In this document: positions 1,615 to 29,935 of the stretch, in pieces
How the letters are laid out: every line of letters starts with the position of its first letter
How positions within the stretch are numbered: the first letter of the stretch is position 1
Source: Turritopsis dohrnii
Taxonomy: Eukaryota > Cnidaria > Hydrozoa > Anthoathecata > Oceaniidae
Length of the DNA stretch: 64,000 nt
NCBI GenBank assembly: GCA_027922465.2
Contig: BQMF02000211.1
Span: forward strand, 310,001-374,000
Reading direction: 5' to 3'
Made by a program: the position numbers and the translations under genes
The notes under the pieces: model-generated
Seen by the model: only the letters and a program-made list of their open reading frames with translations
What the model was told of the DNA's origin: nothing
Databases searched by the model: none

Positions 1615-1922
1615 CTGATTGTCGTATGGTTTTGTATCATGTGGATAAAATTTTGAGTGGTCAGAAACTGGACAAAAGAAAAAGATTCTGTGATATGCTA
1701 CTCGATTATGATGACGAAGTAGATGAAATATTCGCAAATCCAAGGAAATACGAAAGACCTGTCTTGGAATGTTTGGAACGATATGTTTCACGATCCCGCA
1801 ACCTTTCCATAGAGAATATCGTTGCATTTATCAACAAAACATTAAAGAAATGTAATCAAGCTCCTATCACGAGAGAAAAATTTGAAAAATCTCCGTACCA
1901 GATAGAAAAAGGCATCATCCTT
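1615..1922 (+). CDS. Exon encoding a Death-like helical domain (domain 1 of Death/SF1 gene)
   Basis: The acceptor TTTTACCACTTAG ends at 1614, and an open frame then encodes about 100 residues up to a TAG at 1923. The segment is helical, charged and Death-fold-like: LLDYDDEVDEIF, then ERPVLECLERYV, then IENIVAFINKTLKK. The same spacing occurs in the next exon (FLLDHNEIQRIF, then LMEVLECWRR, then NCIKAILLFLRK), which points to tandem domain duplication. The entering phase is 1. No good GT donor gives the phase 1 needed for the next exon. A GC donor near 1910 (AAAG|GCATCA) would give it; otherwise this exon ends a separate transcript. Death-fold domains are adaptor or oligomerisation modules in apoptosis and immunity, so that role is inferred here. 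Upstream exons, including the start codon, were not located. Confidence 0.5.
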
Positions 1923-2210
1923 TAGTCATTCCTTAAATTATTATTCTTTTATAGATATGACTCTGAAAAATTCATCAGCATTAGTTCTGTGGGTGAACCC
2001 TGACATTTTTCAGTTTCCACAAAGATGATTTATGACTAATGACTCTTTAGCAGAGCGTTATCAAGCTCCATTTTTAAGGTCTTTAAGATGGAACCTGCAA
2101 CTTTGCTAACCAAATAAGAGCACTCAACTACGGCAGTGTTCAAAGTGTGTGAAAATGTTTTCAAATTTCATTAGTTATGTTAAACTAAAAGTTTTCAAAT
2201 TTTTATTTAG

Positions 2211-2513
2211 AGCTTGACAAAAAAACTGGCTTTACTCTGAATTTCAATGAGAGAAAAAGTTTTATGCCAGCATTTTATGAATTGTTGGACTTGGTTTTCG
2301 ATAAAGCTCGACTGATAGCTCACTTTCTTTTGGATCACAATGAGATTCAACGAATATTTATAGACTACCAGGACGCTAATGAGCGACTGATGGAAGTTCT
2401 GGAATGCTGGAGAAGAAAGACATCTCCTGAAAGGAGAACATGGAACTGTATAAAAGCCATATTACTTTTCCTCAGGAAAGAGAATGCAGTGAGGAAGGTA
2501 GAAGGGGAAAGTG
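2211..2513 (+). CDS. Exon encoding a Death domain (domain 2 of Death/SF1 gene)
   Basis: The exon is flanked by TTTTTATTTAG (ends 2210) and a strong GTGAGT donor (2514). It is 303 nt, symmetrical phase 1-1, 101 codons. Starting from ELDKKTGFTLNF, the protein shows the classic Death-domain spacing: LLDHNEIQRIFIDY (helices 2-3), then ANERLMEVLECWRRK (helix 4 with the conserved W), then TWNCIKAILLFLRKE (helices 5-6). Phase-1 symmetrical exons are easily duplicated or shuffled, consistent with the similar domain in the preceding exon. It joins the next exon in frame (G|CA). The role is inferred to be homotypic protein interaction upstream of the NTPase module. The Death-fold call is fairly firm; its subfamily (Death, DED or CARD) is not. 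Confidence 0.62.
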
Positions 2514-2639
2514 GTGAGTATGTGGATTTGCTTGAAATATTTTCAGACAACCAATTAATATTAATTGTATAACATAGGTTCTTTCCATACTAAAAGCTAC
2601 AACTGATTTTTATTTATCACTTTTCCACACAACTTTGAT

Positions 2640-2915
2640 AGATGATGGCTGACTAAGCATCTATTGGAAGATGCTTTTCTTATTATATTGACCGATTCTT
2701 TATTGTCCATATCACATGTTACCATTTGTTTTTATTTATCACTTGTTTCAGCAGTAGATGCGTTCATTCATGATGTGAAGCAGGCTACAACAGGAGATAA
2801 GCAGGTGTTAGGTAGGTTATGGCATATGAGACTGAAACAGATAAGCATTGAAGCTCTTTCTCATAACAATGATAGATGATGGCTGACTAAGCATCTGTTA
2901 GAAGGCCCTTGAGCT
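2640..2915 (+). repeat. Local tandem duplication of ~232 bp around a short exon
   Basis: The word GATGATGGCTGACTAAGCAT occurs near 2642 and again near 2874, each preceded by TTTGATA or AATGATA. A TTTTTATTTATCACTT word likewise occurs near 2609 and 2731. This suggests a partial tandem duplication that includes the acceptor region of the exon starting at 2752. Confidence 0.5.
2752..2811 (+). CDS. Short linker exon of Death/SF1 gene
   Basis: This 60-nt exon lies between CACTTGTTTCAG (ends 2751) and AG|GTAGGT (donor from 2812). Its phase is 1-1, so it joins in frame with both the Death exon and the following exon. It encodes AVDAFIHDVKQATTGDKQVL, probably a linker helix. The CAGCAG acceptor could also be used 3 nt downstream. 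It has no recognised domain, and the support is purely splice-site and phase consistency. Confidence 0.5.
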
Positions 2916-3015
2916 GGTTACTGCATCCAACCTCTTTCTCAAGGTCAAAGTTTGTGTTAACCATTCTTGAGGGAATTTTCATGGTAAAATGTTATAAAAT
3001 ATTTTTTCTCCTTAG

Positions 3016-3067
3016 ATGTTTCTACCTCGTATGAGACAAAATCACATAAAAACAGTATCTCTGAATT
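3016..3067 (+). CDS. Short linker exon of Death/SF1 gene
   Basis: This 52-nt exon lies between TCTCCTTAG (ends 3015) and a GTAAGT donor (3068). It enters in phase 1 and leaves in phase 2, exactly the phase needed by the big exon that follows (TT|T = Phe, giving ISEF|ETVTS). It encodes a polar, Ser/Lys-rich linker of about 17 residues with no recognised domain. Confidence 0.52.
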
Positions 3068-3156
3068 GTAAGTAATGTTGTGCTCTTTAAATTCTCTATT
3101 AGAATTATATATACTGCTGTGATGTGCTCTCTGAGTTGCTGGTAATATAATTTTAG

Positions 3157-6100
3157 TGAAACTGTAACGAGTACTGAAGCCGCTTATGAAAGCCAGAATA
3201 TTGGACATATCGATCCAAAGATAATCACATACACAGCCAATGAAAACCTATATGAGTTGTTAGTGAAAACAAAAATCTCACCTTCAAATGTAAAAATTGT
3301 GTGTAGTGGCAATATGCTACCAACATCAATGAAATTTAAAGATTACACTGCTCGCTGTGATAAATTTCTGAAGGAATTCCTTGGTGTTGAAAGTGAAGAA
3401 ATTAAAGAACATCATTTCCTTCCACAAAAAGACTGGTGGAAAAAAGATCTCACCGATATTGCTTCAAAATTTCAAGAAGTAAGCAGAAGTAAAAATTTAG
3501 CCTTCACCACAGGGTACGAGCTGCTGAAACATTACAGTATTCTCAGACTTGATGTAGACGCAGTGGCGAAGAAATGGAACGTAGACTTAAAGGAACTTGA
3601 AGATTCTAGCTCCACCAATAGAATGCTGATAATAAATGCGGATCTGAACTGTGTTTACAATATGTGGTTTTCAAACTCTTCTTTAGAAAAGGATGTCTTA
3701 CATATCTTGAAACAGGCTGATTCATACTTACGTTTGTTGCTGTATTTATATGGACATATTTTGTTTGGTAAAGATATTTATTTCATCAATTGTGTTGCAG
3801 CTCCAAATTGTTTGACAGAAAATCAGTTAATCATTGGTAAAGGGAAAAGTATCAGTACCTGGTTTGATGATATTAAAAAGATGTGTTTCATCTTTGAAAA
3901 GTCTGAAGAAAAACAAAAAGCAGCAGGAAAGAAATTGAAAGACTTCTTAGCATTTCTATTAAGTTCTATAGCTATAAAAGAATCGATCTTCTTCAAGAAT
4001 GATATCATCAAGTGGTTGTGGCTTACACCTGAACAATTAAAAATTGTTGAAAGCACTGTGCATTGGAAAATTGTCCAAGGTCCTTATGGATCTGGAAAAT
4101 CCTTAGTTGCACAATCACTTCTTGAGAAAATTGTTAAATGTGCTGTGGTTCCAGTCCATGTGTATTTCATTATGTTTGATAAATGCAGTGGAGCTAGGAT
4201 GGAAATGAAAAGATATTCCGAAAAGATATCGAATGCCTATAGAAACGAAGAGGTTGGGCGCGAAGTCTTTTCCGGTAACCTTGAGGATATGCACGAATTA
4301 CTAAAGAGGGAGTTGGGTAACGTTGCAATATCACCATCTGGTTTAGTAAGTGCATTGTTACAAAAGTATAAAGACAGTAACATTCAGTTTCATGTTTTGT
4401 TTGACGAAGTGGATAAGGAGATGTTTGATGATGACGAATCAAGAAAATTGGGACGATTGTTAAAGGAAAATCAAGACAAATTGAGTAAAAGCCACGTGGT
4501 ATTCTTTACTCGCGCTATGGAGAGACAGAGGAATGTTGTTGATAGTATTAGAGAAGATTCGCGTTACTTACAAGACATGGAATTGGAGCAGAAAACTGGA
4601 ATGACCATCTTTACGTTGAAAACTTGCATGAGAAATTCAAAAAGAGTGTTTGCACTGACTCGTGTTGTTTTGAAAGCCTTTAATGGTAAGAGTACATTGC
4701 TGTTGATAGATGCAAAAGAAGCTGATATGTCATTAGCTCATGAATCACATGAATCATTTCATCATCAATCAGAACCTGAAGCATTCAATGCCATTCCTCA
4801 ATCACAAAGTAAATCGCATAATCAATTAAGTAGTCTTGATGACTCAAATTCAGATCCACAATCTGAAGTAATTGCATCTCTCGGTCAATTACTAAGTCGA
4901 GATGGTTTAAACCCACTTCTATCTGAAAATGTTGGCCAAATTGAAGAGAATATTGACAGTGGTGATCCAACTATAGGGAGTAATGTAGATGTCATTCCAG
5001 AACAAAACAAAGCATCTAACTTTGGAGAAGTGTTATCGGAGTCGATATGTGAATCGTCGACTTTATTTGACCCAAACCTAATACAGAATGACGATTCAGC
5101 TAAAACGAATGGTATGGGTAATTTGATTCCTCTTCCAGACAAAAGTGATCAAGCAGTTACCCTGAAATTCAACGAATCTGATGATCTTGATTCATATGAA
5201 GGGTTTTTGTCAACTGATGATCCTAAAAAATATTTCAAAGCTACCAACAACTTACAAGAAGTTCAAAAGCTAGAAAATCAACCAGATAGAGAATCATCAA
5301 CTGGTGTATCTGATGAATCTATTAGTCCATTAAAAGGTGAGCCGTTCAATCATTCTATGAATCAATCTCAGCTCATTCTCAGTCAAAGTGCAACCATCCT
5401 TCAAGCACAAGTTGATCGTCAAATTACCTTAAAATACAACGATCCTGCTGATCTTGATTCTTATGGGAGGTTTTCAAGGATTGATAAATCTAAAAGATAC
5501 ATCAAAACCACATACAGCTTCCAACAAGCTAAAAAGATTGGCCATGGTTTTCCCGGAGAAATACCATCTCTGATCTTATTGAATTATTCATCCAACTACA
5601 TTGAATCATCTGAAAATCTACTAACAGTAAGAAATGTGCAGAAGTTGTTTGAAACATTTGAAGGATTTTTTTCGGCCAGTCAAAAGAAATCTACCAATCT
5701 TGTTATTTGTAACAGGAAGGATGAGCTTCTTCTTCTTTTTAATGTTATGAGAATGTTAAACGTACCATTTCACCTCCATTTTCCTGGTTGGGAGGGCGTA
5801 GAGCAGTTACAAGAGGAATATCAGATACATGAAAATGATGAGCATCAGGTAGAGAAGATTGAAATTACCATTACGAACTATGCAGGATCCAGGGGGATGG
5901 AGGCTGACCAAGTGATTCTGTGCTTAGATCCTGGAGATCACTACCAACGTCAAGATATGCTCGAGGGAATAACTCGCTGTAGAGATAGATTAATTCTGTT
6001 AATTCCTTACTTTTACTCAAGCAACATGAAGGATCGTAGAGGGCATCAAACTGTCGGAAACATTGTTAAAAAACTACTAGCTGAATCAGAAAAAAGAAAA

Positions 6101-6204
6101 GACTTCCTTGATGTTGTTAAATGCCAAGATCCTTTGGAGCTAGAAAACATTCAATTAGTATGTAAAAAGATTAGTGATGGAATCGATCCAGAGAGTTATA
6201 ATCG
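3157..6204 (+). CDS. Large exon: split superfamily-1 (UvrD/UPF1-like) P-loop NTPase with long acidic insert
   Basis: Acceptor TATAATTTTAG ends at 3156. The frame stays open to a TAG at 6221-6223. I place the exon end at a GTATGA donor (6205), because it leaves phase 2, the phase required by the FN3-like exon at 7079. Residues 1-290 (from 3158) are helical with no clear domain. Walker A is GPYGSGKS (4079-4102) and Walker B-like is LFDEVD (4397-4414), with VVFFTRA following like motif III. A Ser/Asn/Asp/Glu-rich insert spans about 4,720-5,560 and contains a degenerate duplication (VTLKFNESDDLDSY and ITLKYNDPADLDSY). The C-terminal half carries GSRGMEADQVILCLDPGD (motif V-like, ~5,887-5,940) and ITRCRDRL (motif VI-like with arginines, ~5,968-5,991), the arrangement of the UvrD/UPF1 C-terminal helicase domain. 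Function is inferred to be nucleotide-driven switching or nucleic-acid sensing behind Death domains. It could equally be a real helicase. Confidence 0.72.
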
Positions 6205-6223
6205 GTATGAACATATTGTTTAG

Positions 6224-7078
6224 AGTTAGTGTAAAAACTTTTATTAATAGGAGTTTGGCCTATTTTGTTTGGAATAAGTGGTAAAACACCAAGAATACTT
6301 ATATCATGAATGTCTTTTTTAAATTACTGTCCTCCATTCTTCTATTGCAATTTCAAAAGTTTCAATAAGGAATTAAACCGCCATTTTGACCAAAGGAGGA
6401 GCAGAAGTCCAAGTGTAGTTTGATATGGTATTCGCTTCCACTGCTAATGTTAAGGCTTTTGGAAAAATTGAATTTAAATTGAATGAAAATTTTTCTTTGG
6501 AAGATAGTTATTATCTTTATGTTTTATGGAGAACTCATTGCTTGTAGTATAAGCGGCTTTTATGATTTTGATACCCCCAGAGCTGGGATGCTAATTCTCA
6601 ATAAATAATTTTGCTTCCACCTTAATCTCTGCCATATTTGCCTGCCTGCAATAAAATATTGCTTGTAGAACAATAACCTCTCAATATTATTATCCTTTAT
6701 GGATAATAACCAACTAATTTTATAGCACCTAAACAGACAGTCATTTGTTCAACAGAAAGTATTCTTGAAAATAGTTTTGAGTTATGTGTGGCGTATGCTA
6801 TGTGACTTTTAAAATGAAACATTACTCAAAAATCATTCCCTATCACAAATATCAAATTTTGTGTTTAATTCTATATCTTAAGTTTAGTTTTGGTAAACTT
6901 CTCAGCTACATGAGGATTAGAATCAAATCAGAAGCTCCTTTAACACCCTTGTAAAGACACCAATCTCTGAAAGTAACTAATGTTTTCAAAATTTTTTGTT
7001 CAACTAAAAATGGAGATATGTATAACTATACTTTGGTAAACACAAACAAATTTCTTACTTTGTTTATGGTTATTTTAG
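6224..7078 (+). other. Intron or intergenic stretch with a dispersed repeat copy
   Basis: No coding exon was recognised here. At about 6,376-6,470 a CCATTTTGACCAAAGGAGGA block resembles segments near 38,960 (CCATTTTGGCCGGAGGAGGA) and 48,315, so it is one copy of a dispersed repeat family. The remainder is AT-rich and featureless. Confidence 0.4.
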
Positions 7079-7354
7079 TATTTGTGAACCTCCCCCAGTG
7101 AAGAACCTTCAATTAACTGGAGATGCTGATGAAAAAGTTCGATTGACTTGGCAGAATGACAAAAATCAATCCGTTATTATTCGTATGAAGAAGTTAGGAG
7201 AGAGTGACTGGAAGGTGATCGCCAACCATGTTCAAGATATGTCGATAACTCTTGATGACGGACGCAATGAATGCAAAGGCTCGTTCCAAGTTTGCAATCT
7301 GTCTTATGTGACAAACATTGAATCTGAACCAGTGGAAATCACTAACCATCCTTA
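7079..7354 (+). CDS. FN3-like domain exon A (probable downstream exon of Death/SF1 gene)
   Basis: Acceptor GGTTATTTTAG ends at 7078 and donor GTAAGT begins at 7355. The exon is 276 nt, phase 2-2 symmetrical, 92 codons. It starts T|ICEPPPVKNLQLTGDADE and continues VRLTWQNDKNQSVIIRMKK, with a late VCNLSYVTNIESEPVEITNHP. The proline lead-in, the central beta-strand W and the closing SEPVEI are typical of a fibronectin type III fold. Its phase fits the GTATGA donor at 6205, so the protein would read ...ESYNR|ICEPPPVKN. Exon B at 19,966 is a close paralogue. The final TAG seen in an unspliced reading is made by the splice junction (CCT TA|GTAAGT) and is not a true stop. The role is probably structural or ligand binding. 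Confidence 0.6.
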
Positions 7355-7457
7355 GTAAGTTGTTTGTTTTTGTGACTCCTCATTTTGGCTTATTGATTCA
7401 CATTATCAACAATGAAAGCTATTTATTACCCTTCTAAGATTTACTCCTGCATATATT

Positions 7458-7660
7458 TTGACATTTAAGAATATGCGCATAAGTTCACACATTTTCTTGA
7501 TTTCTGCATCAAGTCACACGTTTCCTCTTTTCTTTCTTTTTTTCTTTTTTTCTTTTTTTTTTTTTTTTTTTTTTTGCGTAAGCAAGAAATACACTACGAC
7601 CGGCTTTGTTTTTTCTTCACTTTCTAACTGTCCAAACATAGCAGTTTTTCGTATATTTTG
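7458..7660 (+). repeat. Pyrimidine tract next to a fragment of the GCAAGAAAT-CCGGCTTTG repeat
   Basis: A T/C-rich tract at about 7,525-7,575 runs into a segment (GCAAGAAATACACTACGACC, then GGCTTTG and CTGTCCAAACATAG). That segment is the reverse complement of modules seen at 18,875-18,965 and 19,328-19,408, where one copy is linked to a tRNA-like sequence. It is best read as a SINE-related module in opposite orientation. Confidence 0.5.
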
Positions 7661-7727
7661 CGTCATTTGTTCATTTGTGTGCGGCAAGCTACTATGCGTT
7701 TGTGCAATCATGCTTCTCTCCCTTAAA

Positions 7728-7995
7728 GATGGCGAAGTGGACTGGAAGAGAAATTGCCTTTCAATGTTTCTCTGAATTATTGTGTATCAAAACATATATG
7801 TACGAATATTTAAGGAGCACTGACCGAATTTCATTGGAGACACAAGCCATACTTTCCATTTTTATGTCAATTTTTACAATTGTCTTGTGGCGAATACTAA
7901 AGGATCAGCCAAGCGATCACTGTACGAACTACATTTCCAAAGGGTATACTGACGAATTGCTGAAATTAGCAAAATTTTTTCAGATGGTTTGCTGA
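7728..7995 (+). other. Open frame of unknown function
   Basis: An ATG at 7729 opens about 88 codons (MAKWTGREIAFQCFSELL onward) that end just upstream of a Harbinger-like transposase remnant. I recognise no domain. It contains a hydrophobic stretch (ILSIFMSIFTIVLWRIL) that could be a membrane helix or the decayed 5' part of the neighbouring transposon. It may well be non-coding. Confidence 0.25.
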
Positions 7996-8217
7996 ATATT
8001 CATTGTTTGGGGCTGATTATACGAGGCATCAACTGTCTATTATATGCCAATATTCAAACGATTTACAATTTTTTAATATTTACAACCCGAGAAAAACATC
8101 GAGATGATGCATTCATCAAATGAACAACACAAAGCATATCAGCAAAATCTTGATTTTGATAAACACTTTTTTTTTAGAGAATTTTCTAAAATGTTTTAGA
8201 AAGAAAACAGTTAAAAG

Positions 8218-8530
8218 TTGCTAATGAGAAAACATGTGATGAAAAGTAGAAAAAAAGACAAATTTGATTTAGAAATTGTTGTACTGTGGTGGGTTGATTG
8301 GCTGTTGGACCTACTGAAAATTTATGGAAAAAGAATTTCAGACTTTCTTGGACGCTGTCACGAATTGACACCTTGCATAGCCCTGAATCATAGGGCATTA
8401 CTAGCAGAAAAAAAAGTTGCCGCAGGATTGCAATTATTAAAAGATACAGGCTCAATGACAATGTCAACAAGCGTTTGGAATTCATCAAAGCACTTTAAGT
8501 AAATCTGTAAAAGAAGTGTGTGGTAGTTAT
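8218..8530 (+). pseudogene. PIF/Harbinger (HARBI1-like) transposase N-terminal fragment
   Basis: The frame encodes a segment with CHELTPCIALNHRALLAEKK, then LQLLKDTGSMTM. This is the helix-turn-helix lead-in seen in HARBI1/DDE_Tnp_4 transposases (LxxLKDTGSxxMTA). The expected continuation (SKSVKEVC) is present at about 8,500-8,520, but in another frame after a stop, so the copy is frameshifted. No DDE catalytic part was found downstream. Assignment rests on remembered family motifs. A Harbinger-type MITE lies 75 bp downstream, which fits. Confidence 0.5.
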
Positions 8531-8601
8531 TATTGGGGATTATTGCAATTATTACTACAATTATCATCATAGCTAGAAAATAGCTGGAACATTTTTTCTT
8601 A

Positions 8602-8826
8602 AGCTTGGTTTCCAATAAAATTATTTTTGCTGCACAACGGTTGTGCAACCGTTTTCAGAACTTTTGCACAACAAGTCTGAATGTTGTGTTACCAAAGATA
8701 TGTTGTACAGCACCTGTTGCAGAGATAGAAAAGGATCTATCTCTGCAACAATTTCCTACACTTGTTGCACAACAAAGTGCTGCAAAACGGTTGTGCAACA
8801 AAAATAATTTTATTGGAAACCAAGCT
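8602..8826. mobile_element. 225-bp MITE, AGCTTGGTTTCC family, TTA target duplication
   Basis: Perfect terminal inverted repeats (AGCTTGGTTTCCAATAAAAT at the left and its complement at the right) bound an internal GTTGCACAACCGTTTTGCA-type inverted segment. The flanks are TTA at 8599-8601 and 8827-8829. A 3-bp TWA duplication is the signature of PIF/Harbinger elements. A longer relative lies at 24,196-24,808. No coding capacity. Confidence 0.8.
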
Positions 8827-8859
8827 TTAATAAGATATAGTTGTGATTTCGGGAAGCTT

Positions 8860-9185
8860 GATTTTTTCTTTGAAAAATGTTTGATGCACAAATGAGATGT
8901 CATCTGCAAGATATAAATTACATTATCTTCTATTTTAGATTAAGAATGTTTTGTATAAGATCATTTCCATCAAAATATAAAATTTTCTCTTTGTTTTGTA
9001 AAAAAACGTTAAAAATTAAAATTCTATCCACCAGATAGAAAATGTTTAGCAAAATGTTTAGCAAGACATTGTTACACCTGATGGCAAGATTTCGGGGGTA
9101 AGTATCTGAAAGCTTTTGATTGTTGATTCCCTACGTTTCAACCCTAACAACAAAATAATCTTTTTCCATGTTATTCTTCCGTATA
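8860..9185. other. Unassigned AT-rich spacer
   Basis: This stretch separates the MITE from the next TIR element. It holds a small direct repeat (AAAATGTTTAGC twice near 9,045-9,065). No gene or other feature was seen. Confidence 0.4.
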
Positions 9186-9786
9186 GTGAGGGCTCAAATG
9201 TAATCCCGTTCCATGAAGCATGTTAAAAGCATACTTTTCGTTTCAAGGTGTTCCTAATGGGAAAAAGGTTCCAAAAAAATAGGGTTACATTTTTTAACCT
9301 CCCCTGATCACGTGATATGACGTCATCAGGTGGCCACCAACAAAAAAAATTTTTGGAACGAAATCTCAAAAATTTTACCACCATTAGAAAGAACATCGAA
9401 AATATACCAAAAATGATATAGAAACCATATGTTTAAAATTAGCCCATAGGGAGATACAGACCATTTAAATTTAAATGAGACAGGGGGTGAAAAACTTATT
9501 ATAAATAGGTAGTTCTTTAAAAATTTAGGCAGTAAATGAAATTTACTTCGTTTTTCTTATTGAAATATAAAATAAATACAACGAAAGCTATTTTAAGCAA
9601 TTAACTTTTAAATAAATTACCGGTATCTTGAAAATAATCGGGGAAAATTTATGTTTTTACCCCTGGAAAATACTAAAATTTTCGTTTTTTCTTTATTAGC
9701 GCAGGAAAAAATGATTTTCACTCATGAAAAAGATCCATCTTCAATAATAAAATTCTTTGGAAAAGTTTGAACAAATATTTCTAAAA

Positions 9787-10930
9787 CTACTCAAAGTCCT
9801 CATCTGATCCAGTTTCATCATTTTCTTCATTATTTTCGCAATCAGTACATTTGCAGATATCTGTACAAGAAAACCCATTTTTTCGACATTGGCATCGGTT
9901 TGTGCTACAGCTCTTACAACCACAAAGGCTCAGTTCGATCAACGCCAAAGGAGCAGGGAGGCTATCTGTCATGATTGGAATCAAGGCAGAATTTTCTCTA
10001 TCCCATCCGTAGTTTTCTGGTGCAGGAAGGTTTTGCATAGGAACATGTGAGCGCTTCAAGACTAAAGAAACGAAATGACAACGAAAGATCTTGTACTTCA
10101 ACGCTGACATTGTTGGTGGTAGTTTCTCTGCTTCTGTCTGGAATTTTGAATATAGGTACCAGCGCAGTTTTGGTAGACTTTGAACATGCTGGGGTCGGTT
10201 CTTCCCATAAATAAAAACAACAAAAGATTCCAAAGCTTCCAGCGTTTCAAGACTTGGAAGAGGCTCTGACAAGCCTAAAGAGGCGAGTGCTCTCAATGTG
10301 CGGTCATTGCTTTTCATGAATGCTTTCCACCAGGTTGATTTCGATTTTCCGCAGAACTTGCCAGTTTGATCACAACCAGAGAAGGTATGGAAGCCGAGAA
10401 TTGCGGAAGCTCTCGAAGGTCCTAATGCTTCATAACATGTGGCGATGTCGATAGTGCGGTTCTGATCTCCTCTACCAGTTTGGAACTTGGTAGCAAGTGG
10501 TAACTGCGGATAATAGTGGATGAGAAGAAGAAAGACATCCGTATCTGGGGAGTAAATGATGCACTCATGAAAAGGAGATCTTCTAGAAACTTCAATTGCG
10601 TGGAGTATGAGAAGTGTGTCAGCTTCTTCATGGTCATGGATGTTCATTTCAACAGCAAGGTCTGGTATGTTCGTAACGGACTTGGTGTCGTATGTTATCA
10701 GAAATGAGATACCAATCCTGTTAAACTCTTTGATGGCCTTCGTCGCAAGGTAGATCGTCAATTCTTGCTTGGTGTCAATGTGCGATAGAAACGCTTTCAT
10801 ATTAGTATCTTTACCAATCGAAATGCAACGACTAATGAATGATTGTGCAAAATCCTGAAAAAAATTTAGGAAAAAGGATTTGTGAAAATTTAATTCATAC
10901 AATTTAGGTATATATAAAGGTAAAACATAC
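9787..10930 (-). CDS. Element protein, 3' exon: PIN-like nuclease region plus C-terminal CXC cysteine cluster
   Basis: The coding part is 10,854 down to 9,787, continuing from an upstream exon across a 76-bp intron (10,855-10,930; GTATGT..TTTCAG). Order from N to C: DFAQSFISRCISIGKD; acidic motifs HEEADTLLILHA and SPDTDVFLLL; HTFSGCDQTGKF with its invariant Asp; a helical segment; and CGCKSCSTNRCQCRKNGFSC with ICKCTDC near the end, resembling a tesmin/CXC metal-binding motif. The spaced Asp/Glu residues look like a PIN/FEN-type metallonuclease core. Such proteins recur in invertebrate genomes, usually unnamed. Function as a transposition or replication protein is inferred from its place between TIRs. 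Confidence 0.55.
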
Positions 10931-11665
10931 GCTACAAGTCTGGATTTCCTTAGTTTTCCCAATTTGGTTTACTGCAGCCATGCCATCGATTATCATGAAT
11001 TGTTGGTCATCGGAAGCGGTGTGATTTTGGTTGACGTCATTGGTGCTGTTTGTTTTGGCGAGTTCTTCAATGTGATGAAGAACTGATGACTTATCAGTGC
11101 AGGTTAATGGCTAACCATCACTGGAAAAAAGTGATTTTGGAACCACTGAGAATTCATAATTTCCAAAGCTCTCTTCCAAGTTGAGTTCTGGTCGTTTTCG
11201 TGCGGTGATTAAAAACCTGGCGAGCAAGGTCTTTTCCTCCCGTAGTTGTACAACTTTCTCACCAACTTTCTTTGTGACCTTCTTGTTGTTTTCTTTGAAC
11301 GATTTCAAATTGATCTTTTTCATCGGAGACCAAATTGATGAACCTCCGTGAAACCGCTCATTGATGAAATTTGTATATGCTTCTTTACCAATGCTTTGAT
11401 GATCCAGCATTTGGTTTGCGTTAGAAGATGGTAGAACAGCTTTCGATACAACATTGAACACCATTTTGTCATCATCAGTGAACCCAAGGTTAAATTCATT
11501 CATTGCTTTGACCAACTTTTTGGTATTTTCGGCAATACGAGACATTGTTGAGCCAGTCAATTGATAATGACAAGTTCGGTGCTGATTCCTTGGAGCATTG
11601 GAACATTGACACTCTAACATAAAAGTGTCTCGCATAGCGTGTAATGTGTGTAAGATAAAAAACAC
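10931..11665 (-). pseudogene. Element protein, 5' part, interrupted by a stop
   Basis: The frame from 11,665 to 11,111 (about 184 codons, Lys-rich, ERFHGGSSIWSPMKKINLKS) ends at TAG 11,108-11,110. The same frame then reopens through IIDGMAAVNQIGKTKEIQ to the donor at 10,930. IIDGM resembles the first Asp motif of PIN/FEN folds. The single TAG means this copy is broken unless the codon is removed by splicing. The upstream start is unclear; related frames run on into 11,666-11,915. The second copy (20,467-22,660) has a comparable upstream region. Confidence 0.5.
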
Positions 11666-12364
11666 ATCACATCCAACTCGAAAATTGTCGCATAGGCATC
11701 TCCGGGGGGAAAATTGGGGTAATTGGCGATTGGCCCCCGGCTACGATACGTAACTCGTAGAAATATTTGTTCAAACTTTTCCAGGGAATTCCATTTTTAA
11801 AGATGAAAGCATATTGTGATTGAAAACTGTCTTTTTCCTGCGCTAACCAAGATAAAACAAAAATTTTTAGAGTTTTCCGGGGGTAACAACACAAATTTAC
11901 CCCCGTTGTTTTCAAGATACCATTAGTTTATTTAAAAGTTAATTGCTTAAAATAGTTTCCGTTGTATCTATTCTATAATTCAATACGAAAACCAAGTAAA
12001 TTTAATTTGCTGCTTAAATTTTCAAAGAAATACCTGTTTTTATTAAGTTTTTCATCCCCTGGCTCGTTGAAATTTAAATCACCTGTAACTCCTTATGGGT
12101 TGATTTTGAACATATGGTTTCTATATCATTTTTTGTATATTTTTGGTGCTCTTTCAAATGGTAGTGAAGTTTTTGAATTTTTTTTTCAAAAAATTTTTTT
12201 GGTGCTGGCCACCTGATGACGTCATATCACGTGATCAGGGAGGGTTCAGAAATGTAACCCTGTTTTTTTCGAACTTTTTTCTTATAGGTAACAACTTGAA
12301 ACAAAAAGTTTGCTTTTAACACTTCATGGAACGGGGATTTTTTTTGGTACATTTGAGTCCACAC

Positions 12365-13144
12365 TAGTATGGCTATAAAATATTCACATCTCCCGCTGTA
12401 CATAGCTCGAAATATCTTCCCATCAGGTGGTATACTGCTGAAGATGTGTTTCCACAATACTGTTGTACCAAAATATTATCTTGAGCAATTTTGAAAGGCA
12501 AATTGGGTAGTCTCAAAAATAGTCAACAACTAGCACATATAATAAACTTAGAGAAGCCAGAAATCCAACATCTACGTTGTTTGTTGAAAATAGAAGTTTA
12601 TTTCCAATAAACATGCAAGTCTTTCCAGTTTGCCTATCCACCACAACGTTCGGGACGTGTTGCCTTACCTTGAAATATTTAAAGGTCTCCTCTTTAAATA
12701 TTTCTTAAAATGTTCTTTAAAAAAACCATGGAAACCTCATTATATGTACAATGACGAGCTTGCTTTTTAAATCTTTTTTCTTTTCTTCAAAAAGTTTGAT
12801 CAATCACACCAAGCAATGAATTTAGCTTCGAACCTTAAGGAAAAAGGGAAATCCTTAAATTCCTAATACTAATCCTTATTCCTAATCCTAAAGGTGGCAT
12901 AGGCATAGGTATCCACTAGTGCAATTAGCTTATACAGAATGGGCACACTGTCAAGAAAGGTACATCAGTTTAGTCTTTTCCTCTTAGATCTACGTAGATA
13001 TGCATTGAATACACCTTTTCCAGACAGCTCAACACAAACTTCTCTTAACTCAAACTCCCTGGGAGTGCAAGTTAAAAAGTATTTTGGTGTTACTTACTTT
13101 TTGAATTGGGAACTGGCATAGCAAATGTAGTCGAAATGCCAAGT
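12365..13144. other. Spacer between two DNA elements, no gene recognised
   Basis: AT-rich sequence with only short random-looking frames. The one at 12,939-13,121 (60 codons) has no recognisable motif. No repeat structure was seen. Confidence 0.4.
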
Positions 13145-18525: not shown

Positions 18526-18791
18526 TTGGTGGCTTTAATTTTTGTTTCATGGAAATATATTTTATTGCAATATGATTTACTTCTTCCTTTATGCCCTATC
18601 AAATTTCTGTGTTGCAACCCTGCAGTTCACCAGGATTCTCACGTTTGGAGGTTACTTATTCATGTGGCACCAATGCTAATACTAGACAAGATACCCTTAC
18701 GGGCAGAAAGATTTCTGCAAAATCTGTTGAAGCAAGTATGAAAAATGTTATGACATTTATGAAATTCGACAGAAAATGTGGCAAGATGTAA
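18526..18791 (+). other. Unidentified open frame, related to sequence near 32,230
   Basis: The frame from 18,591 reads MPYQISVLQPCSSPGFSRLE, later RQDTLTGRKISAKSVEASMK. A degenerate relative (RQDVITGIWISAKSAEA) is encoded near 32,225-32,290, so this is a repeated unit, perhaps a transposon gene scrap. Function unknown. Confidence 0.3.
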
Positions 18792-18856
18792 GTGGGCTTG
18801 AACCACTGACCTTTTGGTTAACAGCCGAGTGCACTAGCCAACTGCGCCACGGAACG
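18785..18856 (-). tRNA. tRNA-Asn-like sequence (GTT anticodon), probably SINE head or pseudo-tRNA
   Basis: Read on the minus strand: TTCCGTGGCGCAGTTGGCTA (A box GTGGCGCAGTTGG), anticodon region CGGCTGTTAACC (GTT in the loop), and B box GGTTCAAGCCC. The acceptor ends do not pair well (GTTCCGT against CACTTAC). The upstream side carries the GCAAGAAAT/CCGGCTTTG module that recurs elsewhere without a tRNA. A retroposed SINE is more likely than a functional tRNA gene. Confidence 0.55.
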
Positions 18857-19965: not shown

Positions 19966-20229
19966 TGCAGTGAACAACCTTCAATTAACTGGAGATGCTG
20001 ATGAAAAAATCCGCTTGACTTGGAAGAATGACGAAAATCAATCTGTTATCATTCGTAAGAAGAACTTAGGAGTAAAGAGTGATTGGGAAGTGATCGCCAA
20101 CCACTTTCAAGATATGTCGATAACACTTGATGATGAACACAAACACTCGTACTGCAAATATCAAGTTTGCAATCTGTATAATCTAGCAAGTATAGAGTCT
20201 GAACCAGTGGAGATCACTAACCATCCTTA
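19966..20229 (+). CDS. FN3-like domain exon B (paralogue of exon A)
   Basis: Acceptor TTTCTACAG ends at 19,965 and donor GTAAGT begins at 20,230. The exon is 264 nt, phase 2-2, 88 codons. It reads T|AVNNLQLTGDADEKIRLTW, then VCNLYNLASIESEPVEITNHP, closely matching the exon at 7,079-7,354, including the identical junction CCTTA|GTAAGT. Differences are scattered, with a KSD insertion and the CKYQ segment. The open frame is kept despite divergence, which suggests selection. It is either another FN3 repeat of the same long gene or part of a tandem paralogue whose other exons have been lost or lie elsewhere. Confidence 0.6.
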
Positions 20230-20466
20230 GTAAGTTGTTTACTTTTGTGACTACCAAATATGCTGATGTCCTCAAAAATTTTGAAATTATTGGGTTTTCT
20301 TTCCATTATTAATTCAAATAACTCTTACGAATGACTATTTAGAGACATCTTTAGTCATGAAATTTGTTTGAATAATTTTTTTGTTTCCCAAACCACTGAA
20401 TTTCTAACGAACTACAAATACAAACTAGCAACAGGAACAAATAAACAATAAAAGATCAGATAAAAA

Positions 20467-22660
20467 TCAGTCGTTGTCGCTGTCATGAGAATCACCACAT
20501 TCTTCAAAATCAGATTCGTCACAGTCATTTTCCTCTTCATCATTTGAATCTTCTGAATCACCAGAATCTTCAACATCAGATTCCTCAAAGTCACTTTCCT
20601 CTTCTTCATCGTTGTCGTCGTTGCAACTCTGGCATTTACAAAGTTCTGTACTTTTCAGGTTAGCCTTTCGACAGTTGCATACATTACTTTCGCATTTCGA
20701 TTTTTTGCAAGAACATGACATGAACTGAAGGATAGCATCAGGTGCTGCAGGTTGACTCGTCCATTGGATCTCCAACTCACCTTCATCTGTTATTTTCCAA
20801 CCATGTCCTTCGGGATTCAACAATTCATGATCACGCTCAAGTGATTGCTTCCATTCGTATGCTTGATAATTAGCTCGTCGAATGTGGAGATGCAGTGCAT
20901 CTGCGGAGGGGGTAACTTGTGCGGGTCAGGAAACTTCTTTTTACTAGTGAACAGCTGATATCTAGCTTCATTGACATCTTCACATTCTTTGATGCCATAC
21001 AAGGTACATGTATATTGCTCCAAGACTTCAAGTGTTGCATCGCTCACCTCAATTGTCGATCCAAGAAGACGCATTGCATCCATCCATTTCTCCTCTTCAT
21101 ACAGTATTTTTAATGATTTGACCTTTCCATTGTCAGTCAGTCTGCTAGTAGTGTCGCAACCAGAAAATGCATGAAAACCTGGTAAAGCGTGGAGTTGATC
21201 AGATTCCATTGTATTTGAAGTGATGTCATACAGAGCCATCTTCGATGCTGTACCAATTTCTAGGAAGATCCTTGCTTCAATTTTTGATGCGAAATAGAGC
21301 GACAGCACTGCAACATCTGTATCTACTGTGATAATTTGCACTGAAGAAAATCCCAAAGTAGCAGCAAACTGTGTGCACAAAAACATTTTGGTATCTTGTT
21401 CTTCTTGTGACGACTGTAAATCTTCTACAATTTCCTTCTTTAAATGCATTCTATTCACTCTTAAGCTCTCGATTAATAAGTTTAGTGATATTACTTTCAT
21501 TCTGTGACCAATCATCAAGGAGAAATCTCACAAGCTCTATTTTGTTGTCTGGGTGTTGCAAATACTTACCCCAGGATTTGGGTTGTTGCTGGTTTCGGTG
21601 TAGAATTTTTATTGTCAGTGACCCTATCGCTGATCGACGCTTCCTTTCGAGGGATTTGATAGAAGAGGGTAAGTAAAAATCAGTTATGAAAAAAGATATT
21701 CTGCAAGATGTGGTCAGAATTTTTCCAAGAAGATAGTCAGCAATATCACCGAACGTTGATAGCGTGGATGGAAGTTTTTGAAAAAGTACCATTCCATCAA
21801 ATATAGGTGGTGTATTTTCGGGACAATGGTCAGCTATTGGAATCGACTAGGATAAGGCTGTAAAAAGTTTTGATTTAACTGTTTTCGACAATGATTCGTC
21901 TGCATTCGCCAAAGAAAGTAGTATCGAAGTTAATTCAAATTTGAGGGCATCTCTCATGCTTATGTTGCGATCTTTAGAAATCAACATCAGCCTTGCAAAG
22001 GTTTCTCTGTCTGATCTCAATGCCATCATCAATCCCTTTGAAATGGGTTTCTTCAACTTGCTACTGAAAGTTAGGAGTTTGTTCTTCTTTATTGGATCGT
22101 TGAACTTTTCCTCAGTCGTGTAGATTCTCTTTTCCATGAAAGATTGTACAGAACTTTTTCCAACTTCTTCAGCACGTTCCAAATCATTTGTCACTTTTTC
22201 GTTTGGTACAATACCGGAATGGATTGCTACAAGTTGTTCACTTGCTCGAAATGGGTTTGACCAATTGGAGATAAGTTCGTAACAATCTTTAACCATGCTT
22301 TCATCTTGTATTTTTCTTGTCTTTCCAAGATCTTTCCTGTCTTTTGACGATTGATCCACATTGATGCTTTGCTTGAAGTCGGTGTTCCTCTCTGCCACTA
22401 CATGACTGGAAAAGACCCACTTTTGACATCGTTTACTTTTACCCTTGTCCGTTAACAGGGCTTCCAGGAAGTTTTTCAGAAGTTCAGGTATTACAACACT
22501 TTCACTCTTGACTTCGCTTGGCTCTGGAGGTCAACTACTAAACGGTCCTTTGAGAGTTTTAATTTCTTCTTTAATGAGCATGGCTGCTTTTTTAACTCGC
22601 TCCTTGTCATTGTTTAATCTGTTATTGACAAGCTCCTGAGAACTGCTTAATATTATTTAT
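20467..22660 (-). pseudogene. Second PIN-like/CXC element gene, decayed
   Basis: Minus-strand pieces in order are as follows. 22,660-22,390 is degenerate, with LIKEEIKTLKGPFSS, a stop, then SKRCQKWVFSSHV. 22,398-21,847 is an open 183-codon frame. 21,805-21,451 has FDGMVLFQ as the first Asp motif, then a WGKYL region. 21,518-20,817 has EEQDTKMFLC, TVDTDVAVLSL and HAFSGCDTTSRL. 20,823-20,467 has SCSCKKSKCESNVCNCRK, LCKCQSC and an Asp/Glu-rich tail. The order of motifs equals that of the gene at 9.8-11.7 kb. At least one stop and two frame changes (near 21,500 and 20,820) break it. No TIRs of the 9,186 type flank it. The Asp set suggests a PIN/FEN-like nuclease fold. Confidence 0.55.
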
Positions 22661-23616
22661 GTTGATGTAGCCGACGTTTTCAAAAAGGTAACCTTTTTAC
22701 CGAATCTCATAATTATTCGTGACTTCAGTAATTGCACTTTAGTACCTTTCACTGTCATACTTCTTTCCTCTTGAATATGTTTGTATGTGTTGGAGAGACT
22801 AGTCATGCGAATAATCTCTCCCTTTTTTATGACAGCATCTTCAATGTAGTTGGCAAGAATTTCAAAGCATTCGTTTTAGCCCATGAGCTAAATCCCAAAG
22901 TTTTGGGTTTTCGGCTCAGTCTTTAGGAAAAAGGGAAACTTGTTTTTTTGTTATCTATAGGGTCCCTACTTTTAGGAAAGGTATGATAACCTGGTCAAAT
23001 CGGTAGCTTTTACATGGAATCAGGGGGTTAAAGTAGGAGTACTTTCGGCGTTTATAAGGGTTCCTTAAGGAAAATAGCATTTACAGTGATATATAATTAG
23101 TTATTCCTTGACAGTTAGTGATCCAAACGACTTGAAACTTGGTAGTCGTGCTGAAGATATGTTCAAAATTAGTTTGTAATAAAAAAAATTTCAAAAATCT
23201 TTTTCAGGGGGTTTGGTTAGGAGAAAATAGGGAAAAATCATGTTTTTTTAAACTATTTTTTGCATATTCTTTACTAAAAAGTCAAATAAACAATAACATG
23301 TCTCATTTAAAGTAAATAATATACTAACTCATTTAGGTAATACCAGAATTAGGCATAATTGAGCTTAAATTATAGATAATAATGCTGAAAAGTAGGTTTT
23401 CAGGGTGTAAAATTGCTATTTTTTGACGAAAAAACATCTTTTTTCTGGTTTACTTCCGATAACTCACTAGAAAACTCTTACAAATGGAAAATATGATTGA
23501 CTCGATATGATAGCAGAAATAACTGAACATAATTGCATATTATGTAGGTTATTTGGAGGCACCAGGGGGTAAAACAGGGGATTAAATATAATTTTTTAAG
23601 GGAAAAACGGCAAATT

Positions 23617-23871
23617 TCAGGAAGGAAGTAAATTATAATTATAATTAGTATGATATGTTTTTATTTTGGATAACAAGTGCTGTAGCACTATATATAAAAG
23701 CAAAAGTTGTATTTTTTGATAGTCTTTTTTTCTAGCAGCAGATTCCAAATCAGAATCACTGTCATTAGCATCAGGTTCATCACAAATAAAACTTGAGAAT
23801 GATTTGATGGTGTCTGAGATTAAAGGTGAAGAACACATGAAGAGTTTCGTTGACAAACGCAAAGTTATCAA
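23617..23871 (-). other. Short open frame in left fold-back arm (Asp/Ser-rich)
   Basis: It encodes SDTIKSFSSFICDEPDANDS followed by acidic and helical residues. The mirror copy in the right arm (24,923-25,150, plus) encodes the same stretch, because the arms are inverted copies. It could be a terminal piece of an element ORF reading inward to outward. Function unknown. Confidence 0.3.
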
Positions 23872-24195
23872 ACTTTTGACTTTTACGATCCTATCAAGTG
23901 ACTCTGTTTCGTAGCATTTTCATTTACTAAAAACATAGGCAAAGCAAAACTGAAAAGTTGTGCAATTCAGTGCCCAAAGTGATATATCTGGAAAGATGTC
24001 TTTAATGGAACAGGTGGACTTCCCGGTAGCTAAAACCTCACGTCATATTAATTGAAAAGGTGAAAGATCATTACTACTGTGTTACAACCTACAAAATATT
24101 GATTTTCTTTCACGGTTACCTGTTAGCCTTCCATGCAGTTATGGGATTTGCTTTTGTCAGTGCATTTAGTGGTAAAGGAAAACTAAGGCCCTTAA

Positions 24196-26524: not shown

Positions 26525-27292
26525 ACTATTACGTATGACGCGCTTGAATAATTCCGAAATTTTCCAATGAAAATATTTTTATCCTTCTTCTTTTTATTCC
26601 GAAGATTTTTATTTTCTTTTAGTTTCAACCCACCATACGTCGTATGCAAGGAGAAAAGTTATGGATATCTAGGTAATACTTTTTTCATTGCTTGCAAAGA
26701 AAAGAAGTTTCATTTCTCAAAAAGAACCGCGAATATCAAAGCCGTTACGTTTTAATGAGAATTTTGTGTCACGTGGGTTGCACCAGAAAGTGTTATTATC
26801 GTATGCAATATTATCGAATATCACGAACAAATCGAATTTTTCGAAATTGTTTTCAATCTTTTGTTCTGTGTTGGGATGTAATACATGTTTTCGTCTTCCT
26901 CTTGTTTTTCTGTAGATATTATAAAACTTGTAAAACTTTTGAAAATATATTTATTTCAGTGAACAGTTACCAAGAGATTGCTTTCCGAAAGTTCTCACAT
27001 AAATTATAGATGGATGGTCACTTTTTCATCTGATGAAAATATTAGTTGCGAATCTCTTGATCGTTTTACGAGAAATATATTTACATTGAAATTCCACATT
27101 CCTTTGTAACATTCTCGAATCTTCTTCTCATTGAATTTCTGTGGTTCAGTTTCGTTCAAAAAAATTCTTCCATTGAATTTTTTACTCAAAGTTTTGTTGC
27201 TACTTTCCCGAAAGTTTAAAATTTTTCGTATTTAATCTTTTTTTGTTTATTTCTTTCCATATGTTTAAATTGTTTTGTTTTCATTTCTTCAG
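25881..27292 (+). other. AT-rich stretch with a 30-bp poly-C run
   Basis: An uninterrupted run of 30 C residues occupies 26,493-26,522. Such tracts are prone to slippage and non-B structure, and their length is often unreliable in assemblies. Several short frames on both strands overlap and show no motif. A possible acceptor (TTTATTTCAG) lies near 26,960 with only a short open stretch after it. No gene is called. Confidence 0.45.
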
Positions 27293-27776
27293 ATCTCTTG
27301 AAACTCATGGGCGATGAGAAGTGGGATATGTTTACAGATATCATGAACGTTAACCCTTCCATCGTTACTATGAGAGGTTGGAATAATCAAACATTAATTA
27401 TGAGAGCAATCCGCTACTACAATCCACCAGTATCATTCATCGAACAGATGATGCACTATGGTGCTGATGTCGATGATGTCGATGATACTGGATTGAATTG
27501 CATACATTACGCATGTATAAACAACCGTATCGAATGTTTAAAAACCTTCGAAAGATACACGTCGAGACAACCATTCATGAGAGGTGATGAAGATAACGAC
27601 ACACCTCTACATTATGTTTGTCGTCATGGTAAGTACGAGTATGTGGAGTTTCTCCTGAACGTGGTCAAGGTGGATGTCAACGTGAAAAATAAGGAAAACA
27701 AAACACCTTATCAAGTGATTTGTAAATCTACTCTGGCAAACAAATTAATGGCAGGACCCATACATAAACTTTTTAA
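27293..27776 (+). CDS. Ankyrin-repeat exon
   Basis: Acceptor CATTTCTTCAG ends at 27,292, phase 1 entry (G|AT CTC TTG). The ~161 codons hold three ankyrin units: NNQTLIMRAIRYYNPPVSFI, then TGLNCIHYACINNRIECLKT (the usual TPLHxA turn is drifted), and NDTPLHYVCRHGKYEYVEFL with DVNVKNKENKTPYQVIC. A TAG follows at 27,778-27,780. Alternatively, an AA|GTAGAT donor at 27,777 in phase 2 joins the 21-nt exon at 27,869, avoiding that stop. The exon is on the same strand as the Death/SF1/FN3 exons, but its phase (1) does not match the FN3 exit phase (2), so membership in that gene needs an intervening exon. Intact coding and a clear repeat fold favour a real gene. Confidence 0.65.
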
Positions 27777-27868
27777 GTAGATTGTAAATTAATTTGTAGT
27801 TTTTAAATTTCGAAATTCGATGTGTTGAATTTTAAGATGATTTTTTTTAAAACAATTTGTTTTTTCAG

Positions 27869-29930: not shown

Positions 29931-29935
29931 ATAAC

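What the first reader, a model, noticed from the sequence alone, without database searches (positions are those of the whole stretch)
1615..7354. Death-Death-SF1 NTPase-FN3 gene: a candidate undescribed immune receptor/effector architecture
Seen: Death-like helical domains, a P-loop exon with GPYGSGKS, LFDEVD, GSRGMEADQVI and ITRCRDRL, and an FN3-like exon, all on one strand. Splice phases agree across 2211-2513, 2752-2811, 3016-3067, 3157-6204 and 7079-7354. Known: animal immune receptors commonly pair Death folds with STAND/NACHT NTPases, and SF1 helicases (UPF1, UvrD, ZNFX1-like) usually lack Death folds. Inferred: a Death-coupled SF1 NTPase would be a distinct design, perhaps a nucleic-acid sensor signalling through Death domains. 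The first Death exon's donor is uncertain.
Basis: partly seen in the sequence, partly recalled or inferred. Interest (0 to 1): 0.88.

Follow-up and report, generated by a model that had tools for sequence, protein, structure and literature searches.

The report
Death-domain gene with UvrD-like NTPase
An animal-type gene appears to join two cell-death-type signalling domains to a stripped-down helicase-like motor, a layout that resembles virus-sensing proteins but with a different engine; the join rests on predicted splicing and has not been seen in a transcript.

Summary
A 1,025-codon open exon (3146-6223, +) encodes a P-loop NTPase with SF1A-like motifs in order: Q-like, Walker A, Walker B, MRNS aligning to UvrD's NYRS, V and VI. 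One divergent homologue (P0001, E=7e-12) keeps them. Its first lobe models as RecA-like. Motif III (GDxxQ) is missing in both, so it is SF1-like, not a canonical helicase; no profile reaches its cut-off. A ~270-residue low-complexity insert splits the motor.

Exon 2211-2513 has a sub-threshold Pfam Death hit (E=0.0015). Exon 1615- has none but resembles it (BLASTP E=3e-4). The Death-to-NTPase splice chain is matched by 5 of 200 random intervals. Exon 1's direct join is unsolved: its best late donor creates a stop. FN3 is not supported by any profile, but that exon is coding, with a second copy at 19966-20229 (dN/dS about 0.33); whether it joins the motor is open.

Best reading: a receptor or switch of RIG-I-like form (tandem death folds plus RecA-type motor) with an SF1-like engine. 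New variant of a known kind; function inferred. Nine literature searches listed no description of this order.

The parts
1615..1851 (+). Death-like exon 1 (frame open to TAG 1923-1925); 3' border uncertain; joining to next exon unsolved
   Evidence: Similar to exon 2: BLASTP E=3e-4, 1/5000 shuffles, best other match among 154 ORFs. No Pfam Death hit. Donor 1851 + acceptor 2211 = TAG.
2211..2513 (+). Death-like exon 2, phase 1 in and out
   Evidence: Pfam Death E=0.0015, 19.0 bits vs cut-off 22.6; donor score in top 0.2% of 3431 GTs. Codon score weak (8.3% of null as good; another, stop-ridden frame scores higher). Structure model too weak to use.
2752..2811 (+). Small linker exon, 60 nt
   Evidence: Frame and splice sites; codon score reached by 3.0% of stop-free non-coding stretches.
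3016..3067 (+). Small linker exon, 52 nt; shifts the phase from 1 to 2 ahead of the NTPase exon
   Evidence: Frame and splice sites; codon score reached by 4.3% of stop-free non-coding stretches.
3157..6204 (+). NTPase exon (frame open 3146-6223): N-terminal region of unknown fold, minimal SF1A-like motor split by a low-complexity insert
4025..4048 (+). TPEQLKIV, Q-like motif
   Evidence: in the stretch aligned to PcrA, the only PDB sequence hit at E<=10 of the two-sequence profile, E=0.19
4079..4102 (+). GPYGSGKS, Walker A
4397..4414 (+). LFDEVD, Walker B
4628..4648 (+). MRNSKRV, aligns with UvrD NYRS (motif IV)
   Evidence: hhalign alignment; CMRNS invariant in P0001
4691..5512 (+). Low-complexity insert of about 270 residues; holds a duplicated segment of about 42 residues (from about 5150 and from about 5417)
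   Evidence: composition; repeat score 98, 0/5000 shuffles, 84/120 bases identical
5885..5917 (+). GSRGMEADQVI, motif V
   Evidence: Viral_helicase1 (SF1) positions 174-226 of 228 at residues 899-951, E=0.014 with the whole exon, 0.053 and 0.11 with two shorter pieces, all below cut-off
5969..5992 (+). ITRCRDRL, motif VI; the first Arg is kept in P0001, the second is not
6221..6223 (+). TAG ending the NTPase frame if the 6204 donor is not used
7079..7354 (+). FN3-like (unproven) exon, phase 2 start; ends ...NHP TAG, or at TA|GTAAGT. The part shared with the second copy starts at 7096, so an acceptor ending at 7098 is also possible
   Evidence: Second copy at 19966-20229: dN 0.14, dS 0.43 over 85 codons; codon score reached by 0.25% of non-coding stretches; no FN3 profile hit
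19966..20229 (+). Second copy of the FN3-like exon, 71% identical protein, same phase and same ending

Best explanation
The locus most likely encodes one cytosolic protein (or isoforms of one gene) with two N-terminal Death-type domains, a linker, an N-terminal module of unknown fold, and a minimal UvrD-type RecA1-RecA2 NTPase that by length has no 1B or 2B accessory domain. I think it works as a ligand-gated, ATP-driven switch: something (probably nucleic acid or an invader component) is bound by the motor and N-terminal module, ATP binding closes the two RecA lobes using the motif IV and VI arginines, and this exposes or clusters the Death domains so that they seed a Death-domain assembly on an adaptor. 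Shown: the motor motifs, the homologue, a RecA-like first lobe in a model, the kinship of the two Death-type exons. Supported but not proven: the Death label, and the splice chain that puts Death exon 2 and the motor in one protein. Inferred: ATP switching, ligand, signalling, immunity.
Against: No profile reaches its curated cut-off. ClpX alone scored 37.5, prob 53.9, close to SF1, and SF2, AAA and ClpX also beat all 40 of their shuffles; RecB alone scored 18.4, prob 0.3. The second half of the motor matched no SF1 profile (SF1 0.3, HelD 0.4; best was ClpX at 5.6%). Motif III GDxxQ and, by reading, the usual motif Ia are missing, so helicase activity is doubtful. No UvrD/PcrA-type helicase is among the 50 structural rows shown. 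The Death model gave no death-fold row and the codon score of exon 2 is unremarkable. P0001 begins at a Met near the start of the N-terminal module, so the motor may also occur without Death domains. Death exon 1 cannot be joined directly to exon 2 with a good donor that keeps the domain. Nothing links this gene to immunity except analogy.
Confidence: 0.42

Rival explanations
1. Two neighbouring genes: a short Death-Death protein (exons 1-2, perhaps ending near 1923 or 2570) and a separate SF1-like NTPase gene beginning near 3016-3320, with FN3-like exons belonging to a third gene or to alternative 3' ends.
For: P0001, the only homologue found, starts at its own Met near the same domain border. 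Exon 1 reads to its own stop at 1923-1925 and joins badly to exon 2. AATAAA at 6600 and 6650 lies before the FN3-like exon. The acceptor at 3157 is ordinary.
Against: Exon 2 has a top-0.2% donor in phase, and the two small exons carry the frame into the NTPase exon better than in 195 of 200 random intervals. The first Met of the NTPase frame is residue 57 of 1025, inside the region aligned to P0001, so a start in this exon alone would cut that region. AATAAA should be common in DNA of 34% G+C (reasoning, not counted).
Confidence: 0.28
2. The P-loop module is a divergent STAND/NACHT-type switch, so the gene is an ordinary Death-NLR relative and the SF1 motifs V and VI are chance resemblance.
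For: NPHP3_N E=0.0038, AAA_16 E=0.0028 and NACHT E=0.055 for the first half; the second half gave no SF1 support by profile.
Against: MalT, the one STAND protein tried, is at background; motif IV, V and VI residues are conserved in P0001 and lie in SF1 order; Viral_helicase1 (SF1) match at motif V-VI; the structural rows shown are RecA-like ATPases and helicases, though absence of STAND rows there proves nothing.
Confidence: 0.12
3. A decaying or non-functional copy: the gene is a relic in a transposon-rich region.
For: Exon 1 joining problem; transposon-like ORFs on the other strand at 9787-11740 and 20467-22530; repeats in the introns.
Against: 1,025 codons without a stop, intact Walker A and B, dN/dS about 0.33 between the FN3-like copies (not tested for significance).
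Confidence: 0.1

Closest known systems
RIG-I-like receptors (RIG-I, MDA5, DRH-1)
   Same: Tandem N-terminal death-fold domains in front of a two-lobe RecA-type ATPase; the form of the proposed mechanism is the same (general knowledge; passages of PMC8260672; for DRH-1 only a listing).
   Different: Their motor is a DExD/H helicase (SF2) with a C-terminal regulatory domain (PMC8260672 passages); here the motor is SF1A-like, the domains look like Death rather than CARD, and no RIG-I regulatory domain hit was seen.
TRADD-N fusions to Mov10, DDX60 and RLR-like modules in cnidarians and brachiopods (PMC8195603)
   Same: Death-superfamily adaptor domains joined to RNA helicases, including Mov10 (SF1 by my own knowledge), in marine invertebrates (section 11).
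   Different: No TRADD-N hit here; the motor looks nearer UvrD/PcrA than the UPF1/Mov10 type by its motifs (inference; Mov10 not compared).
UvrD/PcrA/Rep (SF1A helicases)
   Same: Q-like motif, Walker A and B, NYRS-like motif IV, IVa-like strand (by reading), motifs V and VI, RecA lobe 1.
   Different: No room for 1B or 2B by length, motif III GDxxQ missing, large low-complexity insert, Death-type domains.
Gabija GajB
   Different: Bacterial, partner is GajA nuclease, no Death domains (recalled).
Animal NLRs with Death domains
   Same: Death domain plus P-loop NTPase.
   Different: STAND/NACHT NTPase; comparison with MalT at background; no animal NLR was compared.

Membership tests
SF1 helicase superfamily (UvrD/PcrA type) | Walker A and Walker B | tested here: met
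   GPYGSGKS and LFDEVD; GSGKS and the DE conserved in P0001
SF1 helicase superfamily (UvrD/PcrA type) | Motif IV (NYRS-type Arg), V and VI (Arg) in order after Walker B | tested here: met
   CMRNS aligned to UvrD NYRS; GSRGMEADQV and TRCRDRL; V and VI matched by reading and by a sub-threshold profile only
SF1 helicase superfamily (UvrD/PcrA type) | Motif III GDxxQ | tested here: not met
   FFTRAMERQR here, LVAQSMENRR in P0001, by reading the alignment; so it is filed as SF1-like, not as an SF1 helicase
SF1 helicase superfamily (UvrD/PcrA type) | Curated profile above cut-off | tested here: not met
   Viral_helicase1 15.6 vs 21; P0001 UvrD-helicase 10.2 vs 23, E=0.6
SF1 helicase superfamily (UvrD/PcrA type) | Two RecA-like lobes | tested here: inconclusive
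   Lobe 1 modelled and matched; lobe 2 not modelled; its profile comparison gave no SF1 support
Death domain (PF00531) | Profile match above cut-off | tested here: inconclusive
   Exon 2: 19.0 vs 22.6 bits, E=0.0015, so under the cut-off; exon 1: none, but exon 1 is similar to exon 2
Death domain (PF00531) | Six-helix death fold | tested here: inconclusive
   Single-sequence model, pLDDT 58.5, three long helices; matches not informative
RIG-I-like receptor | DExD/H SF2 helicase | tested here: not met
   By reading, Walker B is DEVD and motif VI is TRCRDRL, not the HRxGRxGR type. Profiles alone are less clear: DEAD E=0.0074 under cut-off, RhlB+RecG score 34.9 vs SF1 43.5, RhlB alone at background
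RIG-I-like receptor | C-terminal RIG-I regulatory domain | tested here: inconclusive
   No such Pfam hit in the NTPase or FN3-like exon, but the 3' end of the gene is not settled
NLR / STAND | NACHT or NB-ARC STAND NTPase | tested here: inconclusive
   NACHT E=0.055, NPHP3_N E=0.0038, both under cut-off; MalT at background
TRADD-N fusions | TRADD-N domain | tested here: inconclusive
   No TRADD-N family among the Pfam hits of the four exons scanned; no dedicated comparison was made
FN3 | FN3 profile or fold | tested here: inconclusive
   No FN3 hit in Pfam or in the two-copy PDB search, whose best hits are Myb; fold not predicted

The most novel reading that the evidence does not exclude
A separate animal class of death-fold receptors whose motor is a minimal SF1A-type NTPase rather than SF2 (RLR) or STAND (NLR): a third, independent way of coupling a nucleic-acid-type ATPase to Death-domain assembly, with a modular 3' exon that is duplicated 12.6 kb downstream and could be swapped by splicing.
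Probability: 0.28. Interest if true: 0.78.

Novelty: new variant of a known kind. Interest (0 to 1): 0.52.

Why it matters
Animal death-fold immune receptors are usually sorted by their ATPase: STAND in NLRs, SF2 in RLRs. The cnidarian survey in PMC8260672 (passages seen) classes RLRs by DExD/H helicase, CARD and regulatory domains, so a Death protein with an SF1-like motor that scores under every curated cut-off tried here would not be counted by such rules. If the join is real, it shows that the receptor plan (death folds plus ATP-driven motor) has been built on yet another ATPase, and gives a concrete protein to test for what it senses.

Tried and rejected
Homology search of the whole exon: 0 of 7998 scored candidates at E<=0.001; with the motor region alone, 1 of 6089 at E<=1 (P0001); with the two-sequence alignment, 0 of 7998 at E<=0.01. 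One search did not list P0001 itself, so its negative result may say little. Relatives in viral contigs and genome contigs: none confirmed. These scans need short exact or near-exact motifs and the collections are viral and prokaryotic, so they speak against a recent bacterial or viral gene but do not measure the spread among animals.

NCBIfam and PADLOC scans gave nothing useful. PDB sequence searches with single exons gave only weak hits, best E 0.084 to 0.32, and the profile of the two Death exons gave one hit at E=6.8. Foldseek's best rows for the NTPase model mix AAA+ (ORC, Cdc6), RAD51 paralogues, V1-ATPase, KaiC, Rho and an RNA helicase, so the model alone does not choose SF1. No UvrD/PcrA-type helicase is among the 50 VIA rows shown; the Gabija chain is the one row I take for SF1-type. 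The Death model gave no death-fold row among the 50 shown.

A possible upstream exon at 1423-1456 was considered and dropped: its codon score is typical of non-coding DNA (0.93 of null as good). The C-terminal resemblance of P0001 to the unspliced end of the NTPase frame is too weak to use (score 18). Column-shuffle controls were run for 9 of the 11 profile sets; RecB alone and Lon alone were left out. An idea from memory, that the N-terminal module is a degenerate NERD/restriction-nuclease-like domain and that a broad uncharacterised cnidarian and lophotrochozoan family shares this motor, was not tested and is a lead only.

Literature: nine searches, of which several returned capped lists (for example 20 of 409 papers, 20 of 125). 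Two papers were opened: PMC8195603 (passages, and section 11) and PMC8260672 (passages). All others were seen as listings with abstract starts only, including PMC7641849, the one paper holding UvrD, death domain and coral together (once, once and six times; about EVE and DCD domains). No listing or passage seen describes Death domains with an SF1/UvrD-type motor in one animal protein; the library lacks most subscription journals.
Full report
What is there. The two Death-type exons lie upstream, at 1615- and 2211-2513, and the 'FN3' exon downstream at 7079-7354. G+C is 33-36% in eight 8-kb blocks of the window, and 35-40% in the five exons measured against 29% and 32% in two non-coding stretches.

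The NTPase. Pfam scans give only sub-threshold hits: in the first half AAA_16 E=0.0028, NPHP3_N 0.0038, AAA 0.0052, DEAD 0.0074, and near the end Viral_helicase1, an SF1 family, E=0.014 over its motif V-VI end with the whole exon, 0.053 and 0.11 with shorter pieces. A search of about 5.8 billion proteins with the motor region found one relative, P0001, 838 residues, E=7e-12. It aligns over two stretches, 26% of 411 and 28% of 179 columns, and keeps YGSGKSLVA, the DE of Walker B, CMRNS, the G-RG--A-QV of motif V and the first arginine of motif VI, not the second. Its own best Pfam hits are DEAD (0.0034) and ResIII (0.0046), with UvrD-helicase at 0.6.

SF1 or something else. I built small profiles from E. 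coli K-12 proteins and compared them with the two-sequence profile. First half of the motor, score and probability: SF1 43.5, 66.8; UvrD+Rep 40.8, 58.3; HelD 39.8, 57.3; RecB alone 18.4, 0.3; SF2 pair 34.9, 27.6; RhlB alone 22.3, 1.8; AAA trio 34.2, 27.1; ClpX alone 37.5, 53.9; Lon 23.5, 1.7; DnaA 17.9, 0.4; MalT 18.5, 0.4. The second half matched nothing well (SF1 0.3, HelD 0.4; the best was ClpX at 5.6), and the two halves joined gave SF1 57.2 and ClpX 38.4. Against 40 column shuffles each, run for 9 of the 11 sets, SF1, UvrD+Rep, HelD, SF2, AAA and ClpX were never equalled, while MalT, RhlB and DnaA were equalled twice each. The UvrD alignment puts TLKTCMRNSKRVFAL on the UvrD stretch with NYRS, which is motif IV (motif name recalled). 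The same profile's only PDB sequence hit at E<=10 is PcrA, E=0.19. I take this as SF1A-like, moderately supported. It is not a canonical helicase: motif III GDxxQ is replaced in both proteins (read), and by length there is no room for the 1B and 2B domains of UvrD (recalled). By my reading, TNLVICNRKDELLLLFNVMRMLNVPFHLHFPG is the IVa strand region of lobe 2; this is inference.

Insert. Between motif IV and lobe 2 lie some 270 residues, the middle of them rich in polar and small residues (S, N, Q, D, E, P, T, G, K make 0.68-0.72 of residues 541-720), with a 42-residue segment duplicated inside (score 98, 0 of 5000 shuffles, 84 of 120 bases identical). The second copy runs into the start of lobe 2, so the first copy looks like an internal duplication (inference).

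Death domains. Exon 2 hits Pfam Death at E=0.0015, 19.0 bits against 22.6. Exon 1 hits no Death profile. But exon 1 aligns with exon 2 over the same part of the domain, 36% over 64 columns, E=3e-4 as a single comparison; 1 of 5000 shuffles does as well, and among 154 ORFs of 70 or more codons in the window each is the other's best match after itself. The single-sequence model of exon 2 is too poor to judge (pLDDT 58.5), and its structural rows are assorted helical proteins. I accept a Death-type tandem as likely, not proven.

Does it make one protein? Exon 2 ends at a donor in the top 0.2% of 3431 GTs. It cannot join the NTPase exon directly at 3157 in frame: it ends in phase 1 and that exon starts in phase 2, and the 52-base exon makes the shift. 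Against this, a single small exon 2752-2806 also keeps the frame at a lower score (5.0; 67 of 200 random intervals have one as good), and the acceptors at 2211, 3016 and 3157 are middling to ordinary (15.8%, 17.2% and 34.5% of 3329 AGs score higher). Codon scores trained on the NTPase exon are reached by 3.0% and 4.3% of null stretches for the small exons, 2.4% for exon 1, 8.3% for exon 2 (where another, stop-ridden frame scores higher), and 0.25% for each FN3-like exon. Introns on both sides of the first small exon share a 51-base repeat, 84% identical. Exon 1 is the weak link: donor 1851 with acceptor 2211 makes TAG, and other direct joins use poor sites or cut the domain short; a small exon at 2088-2144 could bridge it, on weak evidence. 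The 5' end of the gene was not found.

The 3' end. The 6204 donor (6.6% of GTs higher) to 7079 (9.0% of AGs higher) keeps the frame, but the NTPase frame also stops at 6221-6223 and AATAAA follows at 6600 and 6650. The FN3-like exon exists twice: 7079-7354 and 19966-20229, 71% identical protein, dN 0.14 and dS 0.43 over 85 codons, differences at codon positions 13, 8, 22, so both copies seem to have been kept as protein (no significance test). So tandem use, an acceptor ending at 7098, and alternative terminal exons are all possible. That it is FN3 rests on look alone; the two-copy profile's best PDB hits are Myb repeats, best E=0.0014, over positions 12-47 of 86.

How it may work, and kinship. 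In form it resembles RIG-I/MDA5: two death-fold domains, then a RecA-type ATPase. [quoted passage not shown] PMC8195603 (section 11) reports TRADD-N proteins of cnidarians and brachiopods fused to Mov10, DDX60 and RLR-like modules, and links such fusions to nearby transposons; so death-superfamily plus helicase fusions are known. What would be new is a Death tandem on an SF1A-like minimal motor. The nine literature searches, seen as partly capped listings, turned up no description of it. The ATP-switch and Death-assembly steps are inference by analogy.

Verdict. Real coding locus, SF1-like NTPase, one likely and one related Death-type exon, a plausible but unproven single gene, an unproven FN3 label. 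New variant of a known kind; interest moderate until a transcript and relatives are seen.

Noticed in passing
19966-20229 (+): Second copy of the FN3-like exon, 12.6 kb downstream, same splice phase and same TAG/GTAAGT ending, dN/dS about 0.33 against the first.
   Followed up: yes
9787-11740 (-) and 20467-22530 (-): Two transposon-like multi-ORF elements with related proteins (26-34% identical where matched; one ORF with a sub-threshold Tesmin/TSO1 CXC hit, E=0.0005), one downstream of each FN3-like exon; no DNA similarity at E<=1e-3 between 7355-13000 and 20230-24000.
   Followed up: partly
2620-2670 and 2854-2904 (+): 51-base repeat, 84% identical, in the introns on both sides of the first small exon.
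   Followed up: partly
about 8600-8830: Short element with terminal inverted repeats (GCTTGGTTTCCAATAAAATTATTTTTG...), MITE-like by look.
   Followed up: no
41161-43092 (-): Tyrosinase gene exon, Pfam Tyrosinase E=8e-44.
   Followed up: no
58457-59389 (-): Sulfotransferase, Pfam Sulfotransfer_1 E=3e-41, single open frame.
   Followed up: no
27220-27780 (+): Ankyrin-repeat exon, Ank_2 E=6e-26, on the same strand downstream; whether it belongs to another gene was not examined.
   Followed up: no
29931-30722 (+) and 55432-56793 (+): Retroelement-like ORFs: a sub-threshold GIY-YIG hit (E=0.004, Penelope-like by my own knowledge) and a reverse transcriptase (RVT_1 E=5e-7).
   Followed up: no
18791-18849 (-): Weak tRNA match, at the Rfam cut-off (29.3 vs 29 bits, E=0.048); possibly a SINE-like relic (guess).
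   Followed up: no
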